Source: Candidatus Saccharimonadota bacterium (lineage in GTDB: Bacteria; Patescibacteriota; Saccharimonadia; Saccharimonadales; Saccharimonadaceae). Taken from it: a stretch of 51,993 bases of DNA. Each line of letters begins with the position of its first letter. The first letter of the stretch is position 1. This document shows, in pieces, positions 30,226 to 42,159 of the stretch. Both the position numbers and the translations under genes were made by a program. The DNA is taken from assembly GCA_030523715.1 (NCBI GenBank), contig JAUNHY010000008.1:1-51993 (forward strand), read 5' to 3'. Under the pieces are notes generated by a model. It was not told where the DNA came from and made no database searches. It saw only the letters and a program-made list of their open reading frames with translations.

Positions 30226-30903
30226 TTATACCATTTTAAGCAATAGCACATCCCTTACGCTTTTATCTTTTGCATCGCAAGTCGATAGCATTACGTACTT
30301 TTCTCCATTTTCATCCTGCCAATGCCAAGCGTTTTTTCGCAGCTCATTTAAAGCATCCAGTGAGACGCGTCCATATACATCTTTAGTGTCTGCGTTAATC
30401 TTCGAAAAACCGACCACTCTCAAATCATAAACACCATCTTCATAGTACAATTTTCCAGTTCTATGCTCCTGAAAGTATTTCTCATCTGCATATTTAATTA
30501 CGTCCGAAAACATTTTTCCATAGCTCATCCTGTGGCCGTAAATAATCAAAAAATCGTCGTACAAAATGTCGTTCCGATAATCCATAAATATGCTCCCTGC
30601 CGTCGCAAATTCGTTTAAATAATTCCTAGACAAATAATAATCATTATCGTCAGATTGTAAGACTGGATAGTTTATACTCGTATCATTAATAATAATCCAA
30701 CCCACAATCTGTGGATTAATTCCATACAATTCGTCAAAATTAGGCCCCTCTTCAGCTGGCGCATATCGCATTATTTCGTCGCCAAGAACTGCGCTTTGCG
30801 TCACTAAAAAGCTATCAAACACAACATAACCACCGAGTGTAACAATAACCACCATTGCCAAAAAACCAATCAAATCCAATACACGATTAAAGACGTTAAT
30901 CAT
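30226..30903 (-). CDS. Class B sortase (probable pilus polymerase)
   Basis: 225 residues. An N-terminal membrane helix (about 10-32) is followed by the sortase barrel. Catalytic His in IIYGHRMSYGKMFSD, Cys in YVMLSTCDA and Arg in VRDVLLLK are all present. The TLSTC-like motif and the insert before the Cys are typical of class B. Class B sortases cross-link FctA-type pilins in group A Streptococcus. ATG 30903 is preferred over TTG 30906. It overlaps the small SipA-like gene by 8 nt and ends the operon giant adhesin, pilin, SipA-like, sortase. Confidence 0.92.
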   Translation of the reverse strand: MINVFNRVLDLIGFLAMVVIVTLGGYVVFDSFLVTQSAVLGDEIMRYAPAEEGPNFDELYGINPQIVGWIIINDTSINYPVLQSDDNDYYLSRNYLNEFATAGSIFMDYRNDILYDDFLIIYGHRMSYGKMFSDVIKYADEKYFQEHRTGKLYYEDGVYDLRVVGFSKINADTKDVYGRVSLDALNELRKNAWHWQDENGEKYVMLSTCDAKDKSVRDVLLLKMV

Positions 30904-31117
30904 CAAAACCCCGTACGCGAACTAATAAAAACGGCGTCGTATTGTCAATTTTATTAGTAAAAACCAGATCCCCATCCTTAAAAAATGGCGCTCTTTCATC
31001 TCCGACTATCCTATCCACACGAATAAAAATTGCCATAATGCCAGCCATAATCATATAAATCCCCACCCGCACCAGAAAGCGCATCCATGCACGCTTTCTG
31101 GATTTTTTTATTTTCAT
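30896..31117 (-). CDS. Truncated signal-peptidase-like membrane protein (SipA/LepA-like pilus factor)
   Basis: 73 residues: basic N terminus, one membrane helix (about 13-32) and a short outer segment GDERAPFFKDGDLVFTNKID. That segment resembles the SMxPTxxxGDxVxVxK region of type I signal peptidases, but the catalytic Ser position is not Ser and the Lys domain is missing. In streptococcal FCT loci an inactive signal-peptidase homologue (SipA/LepA) next to FctA and the class B sortase is needed for pilus assembly, so this is the likely analogue. It overlaps the pilin stop in TAATG and the sortase start by 8 nt, giving tight translational coupling. Confidence 0.6.
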   Translation of the reverse strand: MKIKKSRKRAWMRFLVRVGIYMIMAGIMAIFIRVDRIVGDERAPFFKDGDLVFTNKIDNTTPFLLVRVRGFDD

Positions 31118-32184
31118 TATTTGTCTTCGTTCTTACGTAATTTGCGAGATATTACGTAGCCAGTTACGCCAATTACAGCCACAATCGCAAATGGTACTAT
31201 CGCCATCGTTACGCCAGTTAATACTTCCGACTCTCGATGATTAACGAACGATAACTTATTCGCAGCCGCCAATTCTCCGTCATACAAGGCTTCCATTTGA
31301 CGCAAACTTACACTATTTCCCTGTTCGCCATTCACCGAAATCGTATACCTACCATCATCAACTTCACTAATCGAATATCTAGCGCCAATCGGCAGCTGAT
31401 ATAAATCACCACTCACGCCGATCGTAGCCGTCTGGCCATGTTTCAAATAAATAACGTTCTCACTACCAGCCACATATTCGCTACTCGTCGTAATTGTTTC
31501 GCCATTATATACAATAGACGCATCTTGGCCAGTTATCGTATATCTATCGCCAACTTCAGCATCATCAAAATTTAACGTAAACTTAAAGTATTCATTCGTA
31601 TCTGCGATATTTCCCGTAACCGTTTTTGAAATCTCAATATAAGTCATCCCTGCCTGCGACGTAAATACTATGCCACCTTTTTCGCCCACATCGCCATTTT
31701 TGGCCTGTAATACTAGTGTTGCAATAAGATTACCAGTCGGCGCACCATTCTGAACTTCATTCCTTGCATACGCATACACATAATGCACATCGCTCGAATC
31801 AACTGGATATATAGTGGGCTCAGACGAAGCGACTTCACGCACAATAAACTTATAGTCGCCCAGCGTATCAAATTCTACATTCGAAAAGTCTAACCAACCG
31901 AAGCCATATACCGCATTCTCTGTCGGCTCTACGGCATTCAAATTAATACTCATTGTGCTGGGTAAATTATTTACTCGGCCTGGATTACCATCATCCTCGG
32001 TAATCGTATACTGAAAATTAGCTGTTACTGGGTTCGATACACCCGTCACCTCGCGCGTTACCATTATCTGCGTTGGGCTATCGCTATTCGCACCTATCGT
32101 AGTAGTCGTCGCTCCTACCGACAGCGGCGTACCTAGAAGCGTCATTGCGGCCAACAAAAAACCACCCCATGCTTTTATTTTCAT
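31117..32184 (-). CDS. FctA/Spy0128-like major pilin
   Basis: 355 residues: signal peptide (about 1-25, ending SVGATTT), two Ig-like pilin domains, then the sorting signal RESEVLTG, a membrane helix (GVTMAIVPFAIVAVIGVTGY) and basic tail SRKLRKNEDK. Streptococcal FctA ends in EVPTG; here Pro is Leu. In the second domain, Lys of YIEISKTVTG, Glu of YSISEVDDG and Asn of LSFVNHRES occupy the positions that form the intramolecular Lys-Asn isopeptide bond in Spy0128. In the first domain the Lys position is Arg (MVTREVTG), so that bond may be missing. AGGAGG precedes the ATG. Confidence 0.85.
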   Translation of the reverse strand: MKIKAWGGFLLAAMTLLGTPLSVGATTTTIGANSDSPTQIMVTREVTGVSNPVTANFQYTITEDDGNPGRVNNLPSTMSINLNAVEPTENAVYGFGWLDFSNVEFDTLGDYKFIVREVASSEPTIYPVDSSDVHYVYAYARNEVQNGAPTGNLIATLVLQAKNGDVGEKGGIVFTSQAGMTYIEISKTVTGNIADTNEYFKFTLNFDDAEVGDRYTITGQDASIVYNGETITTSSEYVAGSENVIYLKHGQTATIGVSGDLYQLPIGARYSISEVDDGRYTISVNGEQGNSVSLRQMEALYDGELAAANKLSFVNHRESEVLTGVTMAIVPFAIVAVIGVTGYVISRKLRKNEDK

Positions 32185-32221
32185 TTTCCTCCTTAAGTTA
32201 TTACTCCTTACTCCACAAATC

Positions 32222-32233
32222 TCACGTCTTCAT
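32222..32233 (-). other. Minimal ORF (Met-Lys-Thr-stop) with a strong ribosome-binding site
   Basis: On the minus strand AAAGGAGGT is placed 7 nt before ATG AAG ACG TGA, 38 bp upstream of the pilin ATG. It could be a ribosome-loading or leader element, or a decayed start. Confidence 0.3.
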
Positions 32234-32314
32234 TAAAATACCTCCTTTCTTTTCACCTACTTTAGGCTAAATCCATAAACTAAAAAAGCACGAGTATAAT
32301 CATTTTTAAAAGGC

Positions 32315-32347
32315 AACAAAATGCCCCCGCCAAAAACGGAGGCATTT
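32315..32347 (-). terminator. Terminator after the giant adhesin gene
   Basis: Minus strand AAATGCCTCCG pairs with CGGGGGCATTT (one wobble), loop of T/G, then TTTTGTTG. It lies between adhesin and pilin genes and may attenuate rather than abolish downstream transcription. Confidence 0.75.
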
Positions 32348-32369
32348 ATTATTTGTTTTTATTTACTGA

Positions 32370-35300
32370 TTACTCTTCTTCTTTAAGGAAGCGCTTACCA
32401 AAGACTACGCTACCAATCAAACCGAATAGAGATACGACGAATATTGCCACAGCTGACATAATATCGTCGAACGTGCGTGGATTCTCGCCCTTTCCTGGTT
32501 CTGGCTCTTCATACTTGTTCGTGAAGATAACTTCACTACTTGTATCTTCAACAACTTCAAGCTCACCCATACCATTATCGATTACCTCAATCGTGAATTC
32601 ATATTCGTTCTCGTCGAAGGTTACGAATTCGATTTCCTCATCGGTATTTTCCTTAACAGTAAAGGTATATGTACCAGGCTCCGTAAAGGTAATTGGATCA
32701 TCGAAGATGATTACGCCATCGGCATCATTATGGCCAGTAGTTACTAATTCGCCATCAAGATAAATCTCGAAGCTAAATTCGCCATCCTGGAGATCACGAC
32801 CTTCAAGCACCTTCTTCATAATAACGCCTTCGTAGATTAGGTCTTCCGTAGCGTAGTAGTTTGTAAAGCTAATGCCATCAGCTTCTTCATCGTCCTTTAA
32901 GTAGTTTACGGTTGCCACTAGCTCACCATTATTATCTTCGACATTGATAATCACGGTAAACTCGGAATCATCGTACGTATAGCCAGGCTCCTCAGTATTG
33001 CTTTCGCGAACGGTATAGATATATTCGCCTACCTTGTCGAAGGTAATTTCGCTGAATTCCCCTTCGCCTTCGCCATCAACAGGCTTAATCGTGATGGTTT
33101 CTTCTTCGCCATCCTCGTTCGTAAGTACAAACTCGAAGTTAACTGCTTCTACGCCCTCATTCATACCCTCAAGAATCTTCGTCACACTTATTACGGCGCT
33201 AGTTTCTTCGGCTTTGTATGGGTTCTCAAACTTGATATCAGACGTCTCTGCGCCATCAAGCGTAATCGTAGTCTTCGCTTCAAGCTGAGCCTCGTCGTAA
33301 TTATCGGTTACTTCAACCTTAATCTTATATTCAGACTCGTCATAAGAGAAGCCAGGCTGTTCGTCATTTACTTCACGGATGATGTAATTGTGCGTACCAA
33401 CTTCCGTATACTCAATTGCATCGAAGTCGGCTTCGCCAGTCTCGCCATCAGTCGTGACGGTAATAGTCTGGAGAACTTTATTTGTATCAGCATCAACTAA
33501 TTCAAATTTAAATTCTTTACCATCAAGGTCGCTACCAGATTGATTATCAATAGATTTATCGACATGGAACGTAACATCCGTCGAGCTCGTCTCATAAGTA
33601 TTAATAATCTTATTGGTCTTTTCTTCGCCCTTAGCGTATTCAGCCGTAACTTTCAAAGAACCATCCAGATTATCAGAGATCTTTACGGTAACCGTAATAT
33701 CGCCATCGTTGCTTACGCCAGCTGGAAGATTGTCATCCTCAGCAATAGTGTAAGTATAAGTCTGATCAATATCTTCTTCGGTAAAGTTTAAGGCTTCGAA
33801 CGTGACTTCGCCGTCTGCGCAGACTTGCTGCGTATCTATATCTCCACTCTCGTCTTTCAACACGAAGCTGAAGCATTCACCTTCTTGCCATGTACGTGCA
33901 CCTACAAAGGCCTTTTCTGCCTTTAAGGCAATCGAGCCTTCTGCACTATAGATATTATTAATCGTGTCATCATTCGTGTAGGAAACACTACTTTCAATAT
34001 TGCCCTTACCATCATCAGTCAAAGTCACAGTTGCAACAACTTCATTTGGCTCACCAAAGCCTTTGCCAGACAAATCACTGATTTCTCTGATGGTGTAGGT
34101 GTAGGTATCAGATTTAAGATAATCATCTTGATCATATTCAATCAGATCAAAGTGAATGAGCTGCGAATCTTCTGTAGCAGTGCCAGTCCTAATTGGATCG
34201 TTGCTACCCTCGGCAAATACGCCAAATTCAAAGCTTTCACCACTCTGCCATTTGCGGCCCTCAAGAACCTTTTTAACATCAAGGCCCGCAGTACCGTTGG
34301 CGGTATATGTATTAACGATCGTATTCTTTTTATCGCCTTCACCACCTTCATAAACGGCGCTAACTTCTAGTTCGCCATTACCCTTATCAGTCACAGTAAC
34401 TTTTACGGTAATTACACCGGAGTTAGTCATACTAAGATCGCTCAAATCGGTCGTCTCTTCAATAGTATAAGTGTAAGTTTTGCCAGCATCACTTTGATCG
34501 AAGCTGAGTTCTTCAAACTTCACCGTCTTATGATCGACATCAACCGTCTGCGTGTCTTCAACGCCATTACCAGAAAGTTTGAATTCAAACTCGTCGAGAT
34601 CCTTCATCCAATCGCGGCCGACAATTTCCTTCGTTGCCTCAAGCTGAATCTTGCCATTAGCCTCATAGGTATTCGTAATCACCTTTTCTTCATTGCTATA
34701 TATCGCAGTAGCTTTCAAGGTACCGTCTTTATTATCTTCAACTGTCACTGTAACGGTTAGAGCATCGCCAGCCGTCATGCCTGCAGGCATCGCGCCAGTT
34801 TCTTTAATTGTATAAGTATAGGTCTCAGCAATATCTTTTTCAGTGTAATTAATTACATCAAAGACAGCCTTCTTCTTATCTTTATTAAGAGTAATCGTTT
34901 GTGGTTCCGTGAGATTGCCGCCAGATAATTCGAAATCGAATTCATCAGTATCAAGCCAGTCACGACCATCGATTTTCTTCGTCGCCTCAAGCTGAACACT
35001 ACCAGTTGCAGTATAGGTATTCGTAATCGTCTTATCCTCAATACTATATCTTGGTGTTGCCGTGAGGTGACCAGCATTATCGTCGGTGACCTCCACGGTT
35101 ACAGTAATTGGACCATTTTGGCTCATGTAGCTCGGAAGCGTGTCGGTCTCTTCAATCTTGTAAGTGTAAGTACCGGCAGCCGTATATTCAATTTCCTTAA
35201 ATTCAACATGCAAGTTGCCATCGCTAACTTCCTTGGTTTCAATAACAGTATCACCCTGTTTCAACGCAAAGGTATAGCTTTCGTCGGTATCCCAAGGACG

Positions 35301-38300
35301 GCCAGTCAATTTCTTGTTCGCCTCAAGCACGACACTACCAGAAGTTGCGTAAGTATTCTCGATAATATTTGATTCTTCGTTATTTGCATTCTTATAAACA
35401 ACACTCGTCGAAATATGGCCTTTACCATCATCGCTGAGAGTAACTGTTGCAGTAATATCGCCAGACTTTGTCAAACCCTTGCCTTGATAACCGGCAGTTT
35501 CAGAAATCGTATAAGTATAAGTCGTCTTATTCTTTACGTCATCCTGATCGTAAGTAATTTTGCCAAACGTGACGGTCTTATTGCTGCCCGTGGCTTGCCT
35601 ATTTTGCTCCTCGATACCTTCGCCAGACAAAGTAAAGGTAAACGCGTCACTATCTAGCCACTCGCGACCAGTCAATTTCTTAGTCGCCTGAAGTGTAATT
35701 TCGCCAGCAGAAGTATAAGTATTCGTAATCGTTGTCGCAGAATAGCTTTCGACAATGCCAAGTCTGCCCTCACCAGCATCTTCAATTTTAATCGTAACGG
35801 TAATATCGTCAGACTTTGCCATACCTTCATTAGTCGGCAAACCTTCCTCAGTAATCGTATAGGTATGCGTACCAACATCGGCCAAAGTGAAGTTTAGTGC
35901 CGTAAACGAAATCTCACCATCCTTCTTTACTGGAACACGTTCAATCTCGGTGCCACTTTCATTCTTTAAGACAAAGTAGTAAGTTTCACCTTCCTTCCAA
36001 TCACGACCAACCAAAGCCTTATTCGCCTTGAGTACAACATTACCCGTTGCAGAATAAGTATTGATAATCGTATTGGTCTCTTTACCATCTTTGTCAGTAT
36101 AGACAACCGTAGTTGTAATCGTACCGTCATTATTATCCGTCAAAGTCACCGTTGCGGTAATGTCGCCAGAATTCGTTACGCCACCAGGCAAAGTCGAAGT
36201 TTCGCGGATTATATATACAAATGTGTTTCCAACATCTTCGGTCGTATAAGTAATCTTATCGAAAGTAACAGTAGTTTTATCCTTATTAACAACTTCATTA
36301 CCGAGCACATCGGTGCCATGAAGAAGCGTAAAGGTATACTGTTCGCCATCCTTCCAATCGCGGCCAGTTAAAATCTTGCTTGCGCCAAGTTCAATCGAAC
36401 CTTCAGAAGAATACGTGTTTACAATCACATTTTGCGTGGTATCGCAATCTTCTTCGTCTTCTCCGCACTCAAGTGTATCGCCATCGCGATAAGCTGTCGT
36501 GAACGACAAAGTACCATCGCCATTATCCGTAGCAACTACCACGGCGGTGATCTTAGCAGTTTGACGCGTGAGGCCGCCCTTCATATCGGCAATATCCTCG
36601 ACGATTGTATATTCAAAGGTGCCAGTATTATTAATTGGCACTTCAAACTCAGCCGTCTTACCTTCGCTTACGGCAGCAGTCTGATCTTGACCATTGCCAG
36701 TTAAATTAAAGATGAAAGTATCATCCTTGAGCCAGTTACGACCACGCAAATCTTTCTTCGCCTGAATCGTAACTTTACCACTTACGGAATAAGTGTTCGT
36801 AAATGCGGCCGTCTTGGTGGTATTCTCTACAATCTCACCAGTAGCACCAGTCGAAGATTGTGCATAGCCGTAATTATTGCTTTCCGTAAATTCAAGCAAC
36901 TCATCGCCAGAATAAACGCCCTTCTCTACGATTTCATAATAAGCACCTTCCGGCAAACGCAATAACTTAATCGATTCGCCGTCGCCCAAAGTAAAGGTAT
37001 CGCCAGATTTAATATACAAGTCTTTACCATCAACTTTATATGGCGTCGTCAGTTCATTGGCTTTCGTATTATCGGTATAAAGCTTAATTTGGAAACCAAA
37101 CTTCTTTGCCTTGGCAGTAGTCTCGTTACCGCTAGTAAAATTTATCGTCTTCGAAATCTCAAGATTACCAGACACGTATTTGTTTGTGATAACAGCGGAA
37201 GATGCAGAGTTGCCCTTTACGGCGTAATAGTTCTTACCATTTTCGGTCTTAGCCACCACATCAGCACTGCCATTACCGCTACCATATGCAATCGTATACT
37301 CAGTATTATCATACGAATAGCCTTTCGGCACATTACCTTCTTCGACGTAATACATTACTCCGGAAGGAATGTTTACTACACGAATAACGTCATTGACCGT
37401 AATCGTTTCTTCGATCAAGCCAGATTGACCAGTCGTCTCGCTACAATTCGCATTTTCTGCGCCCGTACTACAAATATGTCCAGTCCCGGAAACATAATCA
37501 CCAGTATGGGTGCCGTCAGTATATGTATAGACGCGATAATCGTATGCAAATGGCGTGCCATCTGCGTTAATCAAATGAATTTTTACATCAAATTCATCTT
37601 TTGCATCGTTTATAACGTTATTATCTTCGTCGACCACCTTCTTACTAACATTAATACCACCTTTAATTGTATTCGTAGCGGAGATGGTCGTCATTTCTTC
37701 GGCAGATTCGACACCAGTAAAGTGCTCGCCGCTCTTCGTAAATTTAACATTCATCAATACGCCATCAACTAGCATTGGATGATATGTGTAATTTGTTAGC
37801 TCAAAGTGATTATTTATATCCTCTTCACCGAAAACATAATCATGTCCAGGGTTCAAAATCGCATAATTCTTCGTTACGCCATTAATTGTCGCTGACACGA
37901 TATCATATCCGGATTCCGAATCGTAAGCATCATGGCTTTCGCTCACCATCAAGCCAGGCGCAATCGAAATCGTATCGGCACCCCATACACTACTGCCAGG
38001 AATTTTACTAATCTTAATACCAATCGGATTACCATCATCATCTACTTCATATTCTGGTAATTCGGCGTATTCCTTACCATCTCTATAAAACTGCAAATAG
38101 ATGTCACCGACTTCTTTTTCGCGCTGACTTGGATCAAGCGTATCTTCCCAAAGCTTTTGCAACGCGATTTCGCGCGTATATAAATCAACTGGATCAGGAT
38201 TCTCAATTTCAACCGTACCATAGTCAGATTCGGTCGTTGTAGGCACACCATTAACAGTCGTCGTAGTGACGGTCTTATAAGTCAAGGTTGGAAAATCAGT

Positions 38301-39788
38301 ATTGGTCTTTAATTTGTACGTCTTATTATCGCCCGAAACAATCTCTTTAATTTGGCTTTTTTCATCGCTAGTTAAACTTTCATAGGAAACGACACCGTTA
38401 TTTAACTTCTCTACGAGGTCTAAAGCCTCTTGTTCTGGCCAAACGATAAACGTCATCGTATAAGTAACGCCGTCCTCTAAAATGAAATTATCGCCCAACT
38501 TCCAATCAACTTCCCCATCTTCGTTAAGGGTAGCCTTTGGCGCATCCGCCCACTCCTCGCCTAAACCGTCATTAGCAGTAGTGCTGTATGGGCCACCGCT
38601 TCGGTAATACTTTAAACCAGTAACTTTACCATCGGTAGAAGCTTTAATATTCGAGTGCGTCATCTCAGTTACGCCATCTTCCAACTCAACCCCACCATAA
38701 CCGACTTTCGTTACTATATCGTTGACAATTTGCTTCAAGGCTTCAATGAGTGTTGAGGTGCTACTTGCGTTAGTAAAGTACTGCTGGTACTCAGACTGAA
38801 GAGTGGAGTTTGAATTTCCCGTACCAGTATAAGCATATTGAATTAAACTAGAAAGATAATGGCTACTATTGCCAGACCCCCAAGTAAATAGGCCATATAG
38901 TGTATAGCCGGCCGTGACAATAGAGCGCGCATCATCATTCGCAAAAGCCCATTCTTGAGCATAATTAGTATTTACGGAGTAGTCTCCAGAATGAGTAGTA
39001 GGCTCGCCATCCGTCAAGAAAATAATATGTACGGCCTCATTTGGCTGGCTAGCCTTAATAGTATCCGCAAGACTCTTTGCCTGCTGAAGGCCTTCTTCCC
39101 AGTTAGTACCCTGCGAAGTAGTTAATCCATTAATAGCATCCTTTAGGGTAGTAGCGTTTGTTGTAAAACCTTGCTGGGTTGCACCCGCCTTACCGAAATC
39201 TACTATTGCGATTTCAACAATATCTTTTTTTATCGCGTCGCCCGCAACGTTTTGCGAAAGAAGGCTATCGATAACTCCGTCAGTATCCGTCATGGTATGT
39301 TTAACTGCCCACAAACGAGAGCGAGCATAGAATTGGCCTGTAAATACAGTACCGTTATTAGAATTGGACGTACGCCATGCATTATTCCGATAATACAACT
39401 GACGATAGGTGCCATTATCATTACGATAATATGTCGCCGCAACACCATCCGAAGATGGAGCATCCGGAGTACCTGGCACCATATAATAAGTATGATTACT
39501 AGACGCAGCATCATTATTCATTGAGCTCGATGTATCCATTACAAGGATCACGTTTGCCTTCGATACCTCGCTCGTAGAATTCGTGCTAGTCTCACCAGTC
39601 ACGCTTAAAGCAATAGTATATGTACCATCGCCATTATTTTTGATGGTCTTTTTATTCGTCGGCACCGTCGCTGGCGGATTCCCCGCTGCATAAACACTAG
39701 GGACAAGACTACCTCCTAGCGGCGTCACAGTACTAAACAACATCAAAAATGATGCCGCAAAGTATCGCAATCTCTTTGAGATTTTCAC
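32370..39788 (-). CDS. Giant VWA adhesin with tandem isopeptide (Spy0128-type) domains and sortase signal
   Basis: 2472 residues from GTG with SD AAAGGAG. Layout: signal peptide (1-35, ending SVYA); VWA domain (about 75-370) with MIDAS residues in VMDTSSSM, GTNWEEGL and FLTDGEPT; a collagen-binding-B-like region with two domains (about 700-990, each opening with ISKK/ISKT); about 12 tandem units (about 995-2424) of roughly 119 residues; then ENPRTFDD, a membrane helix and tail KRFLKEEE. Each repeat has Lys in L-x-A-x-K-x-L-x-GRxW, Glu in YTIxE and Asn in NTY, the triad for internal isopeptide bonds. NPRTF resembles the NPxTx signal of class B sortases. It is probably the pilus-tip or host-contact adhesin (inference). 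Confidence 0.88.
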   Translation of the reverse strand: MKISKRLRYFAASFLMLFSTVTPLGGSLVPSVYAAGNPPATVPTNKKTIKNNGDGTYTIALSVTGETSTNSTSEVSKANVILVMDTSSSMNNDAASSNHTYYMVPGTPDAPSSDGVAATYYRNDNGTYRQLYYRNNAWRTSNSNNGTVFTGQFYARSRLWAVKHTMTDTDGVIDSLLSQNVAGDAIKKDIVEIAIVDFGKAGATQQGFTTNATTLKDAINGLTTSQGTNWEEGLQQAKSLADTIKASQPNEAVHIIFLTDGEPTTHSGDYSVNTNYAQEWAFANDDARSIVTAGYTLYGLFTWGSGNSSHYLSSLIQYAYTGTGNSNSTLQSEYQQYFTNASSTSTLIEALKQIVNDIVTKVGYGGVELEDGVTEMTHSNIKASTDGKVTGLKYYRSGGPYSTTANDGLGEEWADAPKATLNEDGEVDWKLGDNFILEDGVTYTMTFIVWPEQEALDLVEKLNNGVVSYESLTSDEKSQIKEIVSGDNKTYKLKTNTDFPTLTYKTVTTTTVNGVPTTTESDYGTVEIENPDPVDLYTREIALQKLWEDTLDPSQREKEVGDIYLQFYRDGKEYAELPEYEVDDDGNPIGIKISKIPGSSVWGADTISIAPGLMVSESHDAYDSESGYDIVSATINGVTKNYAILNPGHDYVFGEEDINNHFELTNYTYHPMLVDGVLMNVKFTKSGEHFTGVESAEEMTTISATNTIKGGINVSKKVVDEDNNVINDAKDEFDVKIHLINADGTPFAYDYRVYTYTDGTHTGDYVSGTGHICSTGAENANCSETTGQSGLIEETITVNDVIRVVNIPSGVMYYVEEGNVPKGYSYDNTEYTIAYGSGNGSADVVAKTENGKNYYAVKGNSASSAVITNKYVSGNLEISKTINFTSGNETTAKAKKFGFQIKLYTDNTKANELTTPYKVDGKDLYIKSGDTFTLGDGESIKLLRLPEGAYYEIVEKGVYSGDELLEFTESNNYGYAQSSTGATGEIVENTTKTAAFTNTYSVSGKVTIQAKKDLRGRNWLKDDTFIFNLTGNGQDQTAAVSEGKTAEFEVPINNTGTFEYTIVEDIADMKGGLTRQTAKITAVVVATDNGDGTLSFTTAYRDGDTLECGEDEEDCDTTQNVIVNTYSSEGSIELGASKILTGRDWKDGEQYTFTLLHGTDVLGNEVVNKDKTTVTFDKITYTTEDVGNTFVYIIRETSTLPGGVTNSGDITATVTLTDNNDGTITTTVVYTDKDGKETNTIINTYSATGNVVLKANKALVGRDWKEGETYYFVLKNESGTEIERVPVKKDGEISFTALNFTLADVGTHTYTITEEGLPTNEGMAKSDDITVTIKIEDAGEGRLGIVESYSATTITNTYTSAGEITLQATKKLTGREWLDSDAFTFTLSGEGIEEQNRQATGSNKTVTFGKITYDQDDVKNKTTYTYTISETAGYQGKGLTKSGDITATVTLSDDGKGHISTSVVYKNANNEESNIIENTYATSGSVVLEANKKLTGRPWDTDESYTFALKQGDTVIETKEVSDGNLHVEFKEIEYTAAGTYTYKIEETDTLPSYMSQNGPITVTVEVTDDNAGHLTATPRYSIEDKTITNTYTATGSVQLEATKKIDGRDWLDTDEFDFELSGGNLTEPQTITLNKDKKKAVFDVINYTEKDIAETYTYTIKETGAMPAGMTAGDALTVTVTVEDNKDGTLKATAIYSNEEKVITNTYEANGKIQLEATKEIVGRDWMKDLDEFEFKLSGNGVEDTQTVDVDHKTVKFEELSFDQSDAGKTYTYTIEETTDLSDLSMTNSGVITVKVTVTDKGNGELEVSAVYEGGEGDKKNTIVNTYTANGTAGLDVKKVLEGRKWQSGESFEFGVFAEGSNDPIRTGTATEDSQLIHFDLIEYDQDDYLKSDTYTYTIREISDLSGKGFGEPNEVVATVTLTDDGKGNIESSVSYTNDDTINNIYSAEGSIALKAEKAFVGARTWQEGECFSFVLKDESGDIDTQQVCADGEVTFEALNFTEEDIDQTYTYTIAEDDNLPAGVSNDGDITVTVKISDNLDGSLKVTAEYAKGEEKTNKIINTYETSSTDVTFHVDKSIDNQSGSDLDGKEFKFELVDADTNKVLQTITVTTDGETGEADFDAIEYTEVGTHNYIIREVNDEQPGFSYDESEYKIKVEVTDNYDEAQLEAKTTITLDGAETSDIKFENPYKAEETSAVISVTKILEGMNEGVEAVNFEFVLTNEDGEEETITIKPVDGEGEGEFSEITFDKVGEYIYTVRESNTEEPGYTYDDSEFTVIINVEDNNGELVATVNYLKDDEEADGISFTNYYATEDLIYEGVIMKKVLEGRDLQDGEFSFEIYLDGELVTTGHNDADGVIIFDDPITFTEPGTYTFTVKENTDEEIEFVTFDENEYEFTIEVIDNGMGELEVVEDTSSEVIFTNKYEEPEPGKGENPRTFDDIMSAVAIFVVSLFGLIGSVVFGKRFLKEEE
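32516..36803 (-). repeat. Twelve tandem Spy0128/FctA-like domain repeats within the adhesin gene
   Basis: Each unit is marked by a boundary NTY-x-x-x-G followed by L-x-A-x-K-x-L-x-GR-x-W. Repeat period is about 345-360 bp. The first nine are close copies; the last three diverge (NIY/NPY/NYY boundaries, GRDL in place of GR-x-W). Confidence 0.8.
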
Positions 39789-40090: not shown

Positions 40091-40156
40091 AAGTAGTTAC
40101 TATACGCTTTTCCTAGACAACTAAAACGTTGTTAGTAAAAGGTATAGTAACTACTT
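40091..40156 (-). terminator. Exceptionally long hairpin terminator of the GT2 gene
   Basis: AAGTAGTTACTATAC (40091-40105) pairs perfectly with GTATAGTAACTACTT (40142-40156), then an inner stem CTTTT/AAAAG, CTA/TAG and ACAAC/GTTGT with single bulges or mismatches closes on TAAAAC. About 28 pairs in total. On the minus strand it includes the GT2 stop codon and is followed by TTTTATT. Confidence 0.8.
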
Positions 40157-41773
40157 CTTCACACTTTTATCTGTAACATCGAATTTCTCAATATACGCGC
40201 CAATCAACAAACGCGTCTGCGAATAGAGCGCACAACACGACGTGTACACGAGCGCAATCGCTGGCGCCATCACCCACTGCAACACCATAATTATCTTTTT
40301 AGTACTACGATACTTCTTTGGGCGCGGCGGCAACATCTTAATCGATAAGATTATCGACGCAAACAAACTCATCATTGCAATCGTCTGGATATAGCTCACC
40401 ACTACCGGCAAGTTATGTGCTAACAAATCACGCGACCCAAAATTAAACAGCAACGGCACCCAACCGCCAAAAGCTACAATTGGCGCAAACGCCGCCATCG
40501 TCGTATGACCATCAAGTAAACGAATGAACTTTGGCACTAGCGATAATAAGCGCACCGTTCTATCCTTCGAAAATAGATAATCACCCACATAAGCCACGTC
40601 GCTTGCGCCATAATCCCAGCGCCTCAACTGCATCCACTGCGCCTTCAGCGTCTTCAGAAAAGTATTCGATAACACCGCATCTTGATAAATTGGCGCACGA
40701 ATCGGCAATACCTCAAAATTCCCATCAAAATAGAATAACGAACGCCAATACTGATGCCCATCCTCAGTAATCGTGTGTACGCTCCAAAAATTCATCTCTA
40801 CTAACGCATCTAGTGGCTGCGAATGTGAGGCGAAATTACGCAAAGTATGCGGTCGCATCGTACAAATCAGGTTCCAGAACGAGTTCGTACAAGCTACCAC
40901 GCGCGTAATCGACGGCGCATCCCAAATATTATTCGTGAATATCGACACTGGCTGATAAGCCAAACGTTTGCGATCTTCGTGCACCACAAACTCGTACGCA
41001 ACCTGATCGAAATAACACGGATGCGGTCTATTATCGCAATCCAAAGTAGTCACAATTACATCGCGGTAACGTAAGCCCTGCTCTTTTACATATTTTTTCA
41101 GCACGCGTCCAGCATTCGTAATATTTCCACCCTTACCAATCACTTCACCCGGAATATCCGCCGGATGCTTTGCTAAAATAAACGCACCAAACTTATTCTT
41201 ATAATTTTTTTCTAGAATCGTCGCGACTTTTTCTGTAGCCGGACCGCCCCGCTCTTCGTAAGCGATAATTACAATCATGCGATCTTTTGGATACGTCGTC
41301 GCCACTACACTATCCAAAGTTGGCGCCAGCACATCCAGTGTCTCGTTGTACATAGTAATAATTACTGCATGATAAATCTGGCTTGGCTTTGGGAAATACC
41401 CCTCTTCCGCCGCTGCCATCATGCAAAGATTCTGCAAATGTTTATCATAGCCATATTCATTTTTGTGCGTGTGCGCCAAGCGCTCATAGCTCGCTTCTGG
41501 GTCTTCAAGGTCTTTCAACCGTTTTAACCAATCAACCTTCACGCCTTTATTCATAATGTTGTAACCCTGCACCACGCGTATGGCCACCCCAATCGCTTTC
41601 ACGAGCGTAATAATTACAATCAATAATATATATGTCGAACCAAGCACTGGCGAAATCGCCGAAAGACCAAACAGCAGCAAAAACATGCCATACGAAATGA
41701 ACGCCGGCAGCATCTCAAAAAATCGATAGCGCGGCGTGCGCTTGCCCGTTTGAATCTCGCGAACTTTCGACAT
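40151..41773 (-). CDS. Processive family 2 membrane glycosyltransferase
   Basis: 540 residues. Two membrane helices at about 20-65, then a cytosolic GT-A domain (about 125-400) and four to five C-terminal helices. Motifs: VIITMYNET at the start of the domain, TTLDCDNRPHP (DxD for UDP-sugar and metal), TEDGHQYW (TED, catalytic Asp) and QLRRWDYGA (QxxRW). These mark processive or polyprenyl-type GT2 enzymes such as cellulose or hyaluronan synthases. Product unknown; a surface polysaccharide or lipid-linked glycan is likely. It starts at the TAATG overlap with the small membrane protein upstream, with GAGAAGG as ribosome-binding site. Confidence 0.9.
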   Translation of the reverse strand: MSKVREIQTGKRTPRYRFFEMLPAFISYGMFLLLFGLSAISPVLGSTYILLIVIITLVKAIGVAIRVVQGYNIMNKGVKVDWLKRLKDLEDPEASYERLAHTHKNEYGYDKHLQNLCMMAAAEEGYFPKPSQIYHAVIITMYNETLDVLAPTLDSVVATTYPKDRMIVIIAYEERGGPATEKVATILEKNYKNKFGAFILAKHPADIPGEVIGKGGNITNAGRVLKKYVKEQGLRYRDVIVTTLDCDNRPHPCYFDQVAYEFVVHEDRKRLAYQPVSIFTNNIWDAPSITRVVACTNSFWNLICTMRPHTLRNFASHSQPLDALVEMNFWSVHTITEDGHQYWRSLFYFDGNFEVLPIRAPIYQDAVLSNTFLKTLKAQWMQLRRWDYGASDVAYVGDYLFSKDRTVRLLSLVPKFIRLLDGHTTMAAFAPIVAFGGWVPLLFNFGSRDLLAHNLPVVVSYIQTIAMMSLFASIILSIKMLPPRPKKYRSTKKIIMVLQWVMAPAIALVYTSCCALYSQTRLLIGAYIEKFDVTDKSVKK

Positions 41774-42159
41774 TAACCTTCTCCGATAATACTCAGCAAA
41801 AACTTAATTGCAATCACCGTAATTGCAATGCTCACCCCTAAAAACAAACGTGCAATATCTTTTCCACGCTTCGTATATAACTTTACACTTAGAAGGTTAT
41901 GCCCAATCCCCAACGTTACCGCGATAATCGAAAAAGAAATCAAATACCACCAATAGCTCGAAGAGTAACCATTGCTAATATCCGAGTAACGCGCATATAC
42001 CTTTGGGCGACTCGGGTTCAGATTAATAATCGGCAACACAAACAAAACGGCGGCAATCAAAAACTGCGCCGCAATCCACCAGAACAGACCGCGATCTTTC
42101 TTCCAAATCGACTTTATCTCTTCAGCTAGCTCTTTCATAGCTTTACTATATTCTACCAT
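41773..42159 (-). CDS. Small membrane protein cotranscribed with the GT2 gene
   Basis: 128 residues with three membrane helices (about 25-45, 70-90, 105-125) and a loop NLNPSRPKVYARYSDIS between the first two. Unrecognised. It overlaps the GT2 start by one base, so it is likely an accessory subunit of that enzyme (inference). ATG 42159 or ATG 42138 may be used. Confidence 0.6.
   Translation of the reverse strand: MVEYSKAMKELAEEIKSIWKKDRGLFWWIAAQFLIAAVLFVLPIINLNPSRPKVYARYSDISNGYSSSYWWYLISFSIIAVTLGIGHNLLSVKLYTKRGKDIARLFLGVSIAITVIAIKFLLSIIGEG

What the first reader, a model, noticed from the sequence alone, without database searches (positions are those of the whole stretch)
30226..39788. FCT-like sortase pilus locus in a putative CPR bacterium
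Four genes in one direction reproduce the streptococcal FCT module: adhesin, FctA-like pilin (sorting signal EVLTG against EVPTG), an inactive signal-peptidase-like protein and a class B sortase. In group A Streptococcus the class B sortase and SipA/LepA assemble FctA pili. The 73-residue SipA analogue is reduced to one helix and one motif. If this organism is an epibiont, such a pilus is a strong candidate for host attachment.
Basis: partly seen in the sequence, partly recalled or inferred. Interest (0 to 1): 0.8.

Follow-up and report, generated by a model that had tools for sequence, protein, structure and literature searches.

The report
Streptococcus-type sortase pilus in Saccharibacteria
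A tiny parasite-like bacterium carries genes for a covalently stitched pilus of the kind known from group A Streptococcus, with the helper protein SipA shrunk to a 73-residue stub, so the genus is a natural experiment on what that helper is needed for.

Summary
The four minus-strand genes are a 2472-aa VWA/FctA-repeat surface protein, a FctA (T-antigen) pilin, a 73-aa protein and a class B sortase. The pilin profile matches Spy0128 and T18.1 over both domains, with acceptor Lys161 and the domain-2 isopeptide triad conserved. Full-length homologues of the 73-aa protein match GAS SipA (E 1e-34) better than active signal peptidases. A profile of those homologues alone finds the 73-aa protein at 28 bits, against at most 14 for shuffles. 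The host is Saccharibacteria (16S of congeners). The pilin was found in one genus only of 313 Patescibacteria genera sampled; a Bacillota contig carries a homologous operon, so lateral transfer is likely. At this locus SipA is reduced (17 genomes) or absent (13); at the other pilus loci it is full length (15 of 15). The stub keeps only the TM helix and strands equivalent to SipA's membrane sheet. The adhesin is the weakest member: other sorting signal, adjacent in 4 of 31 genomes. Polymerisation and host binding are untested. Sister species carry in-frame UGA codons, many at Trp positions, in sortase and pilin, under purifying selection with a standard code elsewhere: probable programmed readthrough.

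The parts
32370..39788 (-). large surface protein, 2472 aa: signal peptide, VWA domain (Pfam 180-262; DTSSS MIDAS-type motif), DUF7604, two DUF7601, twelve FctA (CnaB-type) repeats (residues about 1005-2430), C-terminal sorting signal
   Evidence: all 12 repeats keep the Lys/Glu/Asn triad for intramolecular isopeptide bonds
32373..32483 (-). C-terminal sorting signal NPRTFDD + TM + positive tail of the large protein
   Evidence: sequence; relatives NPQTSDD, NPRTYDD, NPRTNDD, PPVTNDS
32319..32347 (-). terminator-like hairpin between large-protein gene and pilin gene (weak; number of such sites in the region not above shuffles)
31117..32184 (-). FctA/T-antigen-type major pilin, 355 aa
31678..31680 (-). 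candidate acceptor lysine of the pilin (Lys169, GEKGGIVF), equivalent of Spy0128 Lys161
   Evidence: profile alignment to 3b2m, kept in most relatives
31213..31227 (-). sorting motif EVLTG of the pilin
   Evidence: sequence; spacing to the domain-2 Asn as in Spy0128 EVPTG
30896..31117 (-). mini-SipA, 73 aa: TM helix, box-B-like strand pair without Ser (RIVGDERAPFFKDGDLVF), C-terminal strand LLVRVRGF
30226..30906 (-). class B sortase, 226 aa, with His (YGHRM), Cys (LSTCD) and Arg (VRDVLLL) of the active site
40151..41773 (-). 540-aa glycosyltransferase-like membrane protein; conserved neighbour of this pilus locus in 31 genomes
41773..42159 (-). about 121-128 aa membrane protein, conserved with the 540-aa protein

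Best explanation
The locus encodes a covalently polymerised sortase pilus of the class-B-sortase/SipA kind (as in GAS FCT-2/3/4). Proposed working: the 355-aa pilin is exported and held in the membrane by its C-terminal anchor. The class B sortase cuts EVLTG after Thr, forms the acyl-enzyme, and joins the Thr to Lys169 (the Lys161 equivalent) of the next pilin, building a chain. The 73-aa protein is the remnant of SipA and would hold pilin and sortase together at the membrane through its TM helix and a small sheet equivalent to SipA strands beta1, beta2 and beta10; it cannot use the SPase peptide cleft, which is gone. The 2472-aa VWA/FctA-repeat protein is a stiff adhesin that is probably wall-anchored through NPRTF, perhaps by another sortase; whether it is linked to the pilus is open. 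The operon was probably acquired laterally from a Bacillota-like donor by one Saccharibacteria genus. Shown: homology, active-site residues, acceptor Lys, gene order, distribution, selection. Inferred: polymerisation, role of the stub, lateral transfer, function in adhesion to a host cell.
For: Domains and PDB matches. Pilin profile aligned to Spy0128 keeps Lys161, and Lys179/Glu258/Asn303 of domain 2. Full-length SipA homologues in congeners hit SipA 4n31 1e-34 and LepA 4e-33 against active SPase 7e-16, all without an intact Ser-Lys dyad. 73-aa protein found by the full-length-only profile, 28.3 bits against a shuffle maximum of 13.9. The same gene order in many congeners. Purifying selection. 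Pilin limited to one genus of 313, with a homologous operon in a Bacillota MAG contig.
Against: No expression or microscopy data. The sortase scores slightly under the TIGR03064 cut-off. No basal pilin in the locus. Large-protein signal differs from the pilin's. Pilin domain 1 lacks the isopeptide Lys and Asn. Thirteen congeners do without SipA, so the stub might be dispensable. AlphaFold models were poor (pLDDT 63.6 and 47.6), so the fold of the stub is not shown. The donor is not resolved by the sortase tree.
Confidence: 0.8

Rival explanations
1. The 73-aa gene is a decaying remnant without function; pilin and sortase alone now do the assembly, as in the congeners that lost SipA altogether.
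For: SipA absent at the same locus in 13 genomes, pilin directly abutting sortase in most; a reduced form is sister to a SipA-less clade (100/100).
Against: Start, length and C-terminus kept in three diverged species at 44-49% identity, as well conserved as pilin and sortase; dN/dS about 0.13-0.3 in pairs with unsaturated synonymous sites; the same residues (R36, DG48-49, R69) kept in nearly all forms.
Confidence: 0.25
2. The pilin is not polymerised: the class B sortase merely anchors single FctA-like proteins to the wall, as NPQTN-type SrtB does with haem proteins.
For: Sequence of the sortase is nearer to SrtB of Bacillus than to GAS SrtC1; no basal pilin in the locus.
Against: Two-domain FctA architecture with the acceptor lysine at the exact Spy0128 position, and a SipA homologue in the operon; SipA is described from polymerising pilus loci (PMC7900414).
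Confidence: 0.12
3. The contig is a binned contaminant from a Firmicute.
For: The nearest known kin of pilin, SipA and sortase outside the genus are in Firmicutes.
Against: Flanks (540-aa glycosyltransferase-like gene, 121-aa gene and others) are the same in about 30 congener genomes; class B sortase relatives in 43 of 45 genus members; contamination estimate 0.22%.
Confidence: 0.01

Closest known systems
GAS FCT-2/3/4 pilus locus (FctA/Spy0128, SipA/LepA, class B SrtC1/C2, Cpa)
   Same: Pilin fold over both domains, acceptor Lys position, xV(P/L)TG signal, class B sortase, signal-peptidase-like partner without the dyad, one operon
   Different: SipA reduced to 73 aa; EVLTG for EVPTG; pilin domain 1 lacks the isopeptide residues; large protein has VWA plus 12 FctA repeats and an NPxT signal; no FctB; Saccharibacteria
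Streptococcus pneumoniae pilus islet 2 (PitB)
   Same: Foldseek (weak model) ranks PitB third; signal peptidase I homologue required there too (PMC7900414)
   Different: As above; architecture not compared in detail
Operon on CAMIWC010000013.1 (uncultured Clostridium MAG), L005
   Same: Pilin 38% identical, SipA-like 185 aa, second pilin, class B sortase
   Different: Full-length SipA; two pilins; no large FctA-repeat protein; Bacillota flanks
Type IV pili of Saccharibacteria (PMC12206443)
   Same: Surface appendage in the same phylum, reported to drive episymbiosis
   Different: Unrelated proteins and assembly; the paper mentions no sortase

Membership tests
class B sortase / SipA-type (FCT-like) pilus | major pilin with the two-domain FctA/T-antigen fold | tested here: met
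   profile to 8f70 2e-30, 3b2m 3.5e-14 over positions 34-318; fold model too weak alone
class B sortase / SipA-type (FCT-like) pilus | acceptor lysine at the Spy0128 Lys161 position | tested here: met
   Lys169, GEKGGIVF against GSKVPIQF
class B sortase / SipA-type (FCT-like) pilus | LPXTG-like xVPTG sorting signal on the pilin | tested here: met
   EVLTG with TM and positive tail (Leu for Pro); weak TIGR03065 match 10.9 bits
class B sortase / SipA-type (FCT-like) pilus | class B sortase with His/Cys/Arg | tested here: met
   TIGR03064 8.9e-42 but 143 bits against cut-off 153.75; 3psq 8.8e-21; motifs present
class B sortase / SipA-type (FCT-like) pilus | tip protein carrying the same type of sorting signal as the pilin | tested here: not met
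   NPRTFDD on the large protein; adjacent in 4 of 31 genomes
class B sortase / SipA-type (FCT-like) pilus | covalent pilin polymer on the cell surface | not testable with these tools
   needs biochemistry or microscopy
SipA/LepA | homology to SipA | tested here: met
   full-length relatives 1e-34 to 4n31; 73-aa protein found by that profile at 28.3 bits
SipA/LepA | no catalytic Ser-Lys dyad | tested here: met
   Ser position reads Glu; Lys-bearing segment absent
SipA/LepA | complete S26-type core with peptide-binding cleft | tested here: not met
   core and cap deleted; only TM, box-B region and last strand remain; hence a reduced variant, not a standard member
Saccharibacteria | TM7-specific 16S primer sites | tested here: met
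   congener 16S: TM7-910R 0, TM7-1177R 0-1, TM7-580F 0-1, TM7-314F 1 mismatch (primers in PMC6073563); own genome lacks a 16S contig

The most novel reading that the evidence does not exclude
In this genus SipA is being dismantled in steps (about 170, about 100, 73, 0 residues) at one locus while the pilus is kept, and what survives longest is the TM helix plus the membrane-facing strands. The essential job of SipA would then be membrane scaffolding, not peptide binding in the signal-peptidase cleft. In sister species the same operon is additionally gated by programmed UGA-to-Trp readthrough in pilin and sortase.
Probability: 0.35. Interest if true: 0.85.

Novelty: new variant of a known kind. 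Interest (0 to 1): 0.7.

Why it matters
Why class B sortase pili need the inactive signal peptidase SipA is stated as open in the GAS literature (PMC7900414, PMC4049620). This genus offers full-length, reduced and SipA-less versions of the same operon, which makes the question directly testable. It would also be a second type of surface appendage in Saccharibacteria, where type IV pili are the documented ones; no report of sortase pili in this phylum was found in the held library.

Tried and rejected
AlphaFold2 of the 73-aa protein (pLDDT 63.6: helix 5-40, strands 45-47 and 50-53) and of the pilin (47.6): alignments limited to window and L005 proteins, too shallow to prove folds; Foldseek of the weak pilin model still ranks T18.1, T13 and PitB first. 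16S in the own genome: none. Anticodon pattern searches for tRNA(UCA): uninformative because the CCA control pattern also missed most genomes; replaced by BLAST plus ARAGORN. Genome-wide code change as a cause of the in-frame TGA: rejected (no TGA in the listed Val/Ile/Leu-tRNA synthetase matches, RF2 present). Pseudogenes as a cause: unlikely (only TGA, no TAA/TAG; purifying selection). Contamination rejected. Promoter and terminator scans not above chance. Donor lineage: sortase tree does not resolve it.
Full report
WHAT IS THERE. Four minus-strand genes lie in a row at 30226-39788: a 2472-aa protein, a 355-aa protein, a 73-aa protein and a 226-aa sortase. The last three genes overlap or touch, which suggests one coupled operon. 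Upstream are a 540-aa glycosyltransferase-like protein and a 128-aa membrane protein. The window is contig C17 of an 888-kb, 20-contig genome, 95% complete.

ORGANISM. The own genome has no 16S contig, but congeners do. Their 16S genes match the Saccharibacteria-specific primers TM7-910R (0 mismatches), TM7-1177R (0-1), TM7-580F (0-1) and TM7-314F (1) (primer sequences in PMC6073563). The genome is therefore placed in Saccharibacteria through its genus.

PILIN. Pfam gives DUF7601; phmmer against PDB gives the GAS T18.1 pilin at 8.5e-16. A profile of 20 relatives matches T18.1 at 2e-30, T13 at 3e-15 and Spy0128 (3b2m) at 3.5e-14, the last over both Ig-like domains. In that alignment the Spy0128 acceptor Lys161 falls on Lys169 of the window pilin (GEKGGIVF), and Lys179, Glu258 and Asn303 of the second domain are kept (residue numbers of Spy0128 partly from my own knowledge; Lys161 from PMC7900414). 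In the first domain the Lys is Arg and the Asn is Ser, so that domain cannot form the usual isopeptide bond. The C-terminus is EVLTG, TM, positive tail. An AlphaFold model was poor, yet Foldseek ranked T18.1, T13 and pneumococcal PitB first.

SORTASE. Class B by TIGR03064 (8.9e-42, though 143 bits is under the curated 153.75) with no class D/E match; nearest solved structures are SrtB enzymes, and the GAS pilus sortase 3psq is found at 8.8e-21 (that 3psq is the GAS SrtC1 is from my own knowledge). Active-site His, Cys and Arg motifs are present.

THE 73-RESIDUE PROTEIN. Alone it matches nothing. Congeners have homologues in the same place between pilin and sortase, of two sizes. Twelve full-length ones, including one from a Bacillota contig, form a profile that hits GAS SipA (4n31) at 1e-34, LepA at 4e-33 and active signal peptidase IB only at 7e-16. 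None has an intact Ser-Lys dyad. An HMM built from the full-length forms only scores the 73-aa protein at 28.3 bits; the best of 1000 locally shuffled copies reaches 13.9. The reduced forms keep the TM helix, the box-B region (invariant DG) and the last strand, which ends RVRGF in the window and RVRGI in GAS SipA. In the SipA structure strands 1, 2 and 10 make the membrane-associated sheet after the TM helix (PMC4049620); the deletion thus removes the cleft and cap and leaves the parts of that sheet. This structural reading is inference from the alignment. Low-confidence AlphaFold gives a helix and two strands.

EVOLUTION OF THE LOCUS. A gene-order survey shows the order 121-aa protein - 540-aa protein - (large protein) - pilin - SipA - sortase at one conserved site in 31 genomes. 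There SipA is reduced in 17, absent in 13 (pilin stop and sortase start touch in most), and one has no sortase detected. At 15 other pilus loci of the genus SipA is full length in all; one further reduced copy, L114, lies on a contig without pilin (15 of 16 against 0 of 30, Fisher 3e-11; the loci are related, so this p-value is only a guide). In the sortase tree L114 sits beside a full-length locus (100/97), so reduction happened at least twice, and a reduced form (L108) is sister to a SipA-less clade (100/100). Mini-SipA pairs whose synonymous sites are not saturated have dN/dS about 0.13-0.3. The pilin profile finds only this genus among 380 Patescibacteria genomes of 313 genera, and FctA domains were found only in this genus among 57 genera of closer kin. 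A Bacillota MAG contig (L005) holds a homologous operon. Lateral acquisition is the simplest account; the tree does not fix donor or direction.

LARGE PROTEIN. It has a VWA domain and twelve FctA repeats, all with the Lys/Glu/Asn triad: a stiff stalk with a probable binding head. Its sorting signal NPRTFDD differs from EVLTG; relatives carry NPxT or PPVT types. It stands next to the pilus genes in only four genomes (window, L049, L050, L051). The genome has a second class B sortase (L003, above cut-off) and a general sortase (L001) that could anchor it. Membership of the pilus is open.

UGA CODONS IN SISTER SPECIES. At least 16 of 49 compared pilus sortase genes have in-frame TGA (19 codons) and no TAA or TAG in the aligned cores (an upstream stop in L118 lies before the start). 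One TGA column is Trp in all 44 other sequences with a residue there and TGA in four species; most others fall at columns with some Trp, a few (such as column 15) do not clearly. Seven pilins have a TGA at one identical site, never TGG; there most other pilins have Ser, so the inserted residue at that site is uncertain. L114 has one at the conserved Trp of SipA. The neighbouring 540-aa gene has 297 TGG and no stop (Fisher 2e-11). ValRS/IleRS/LeuRS matches are uninterrupted and RF2 is present; 30 of 30 tRNA-Trp genes read CCA. Close sortase pairs bearing TGA have dN/dS about 0.1-0.2. This fits UGA readthrough limited to the pilus operon; leaky UGA decoding as Trp is known in bacteria (PMC7918605), and bypass of an amber codon was reported for CS3 pili (title cited in PMC6681793). 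A family-level Patescibacteriota lineage with genome-wide UGA reassignment is known (PMC13092985), but here the code is standard. The window's own operon has no such codon.

VERDICT. An FCT-like, class-B-sortase pilus operon, new in this phylum as far as the held literature shows, with a reduced SipA: a new variant of a known kind. Pilus formation, the role of the stub and host attachment are inferences.

Noticed in passing
L050, L051, L049, L103, L116, L118, L122, L137-L145, L153 (sortase genes); pilins of L116, L118, L122, L137, L140, L141, L142: In-frame TGA codons, many at Trp positions, in pilus sortase and pilin genes of sister species, never TAA/TAG, with purifying selection and a standard code elsewhere: probable programmed UGA readthrough of the pilus operon.
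   Followed up: partly
G000:C14:18234-18713 (L003): A second class B sortase, above the TIGR03064 cut-off; similar short matches in most congeners and two other genera; possible housekeeping enzyme for the NPxT signals.
   Followed up: partly
L002:1489-2160 (-), G000:C11: Sortase-like protein (class F-like match) whose TLxTC position reads TLITA, so apparently without the catalytic Cys.
   Followed up: no
L005:3441-9021: Bacillota (uncultured Clostridium MAG) operon with a DUF7601-like protein, two pilins, full-length SipA-like protein and class B sortase; possible donor-type operon.
   Followed up: partly
L051 (G006:C10): Large FctA-repeat gene split into three ORFs, with an undetermined base in the sequence: decay or assembly error.
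   Followed up: no
window:40151-42159: Glycosyltransferase-like 540-aa protein and a 121-128 aa membrane protein are conserved next to the pilus genes in 31 genomes; possible pilin glycosylation, untested.
   Followed up: no
window:32319-32347 (-): 13-bp hairpin with an imperfect T tail between the large-protein gene and the pilin gene; could set their ratio.
   Followed up: no
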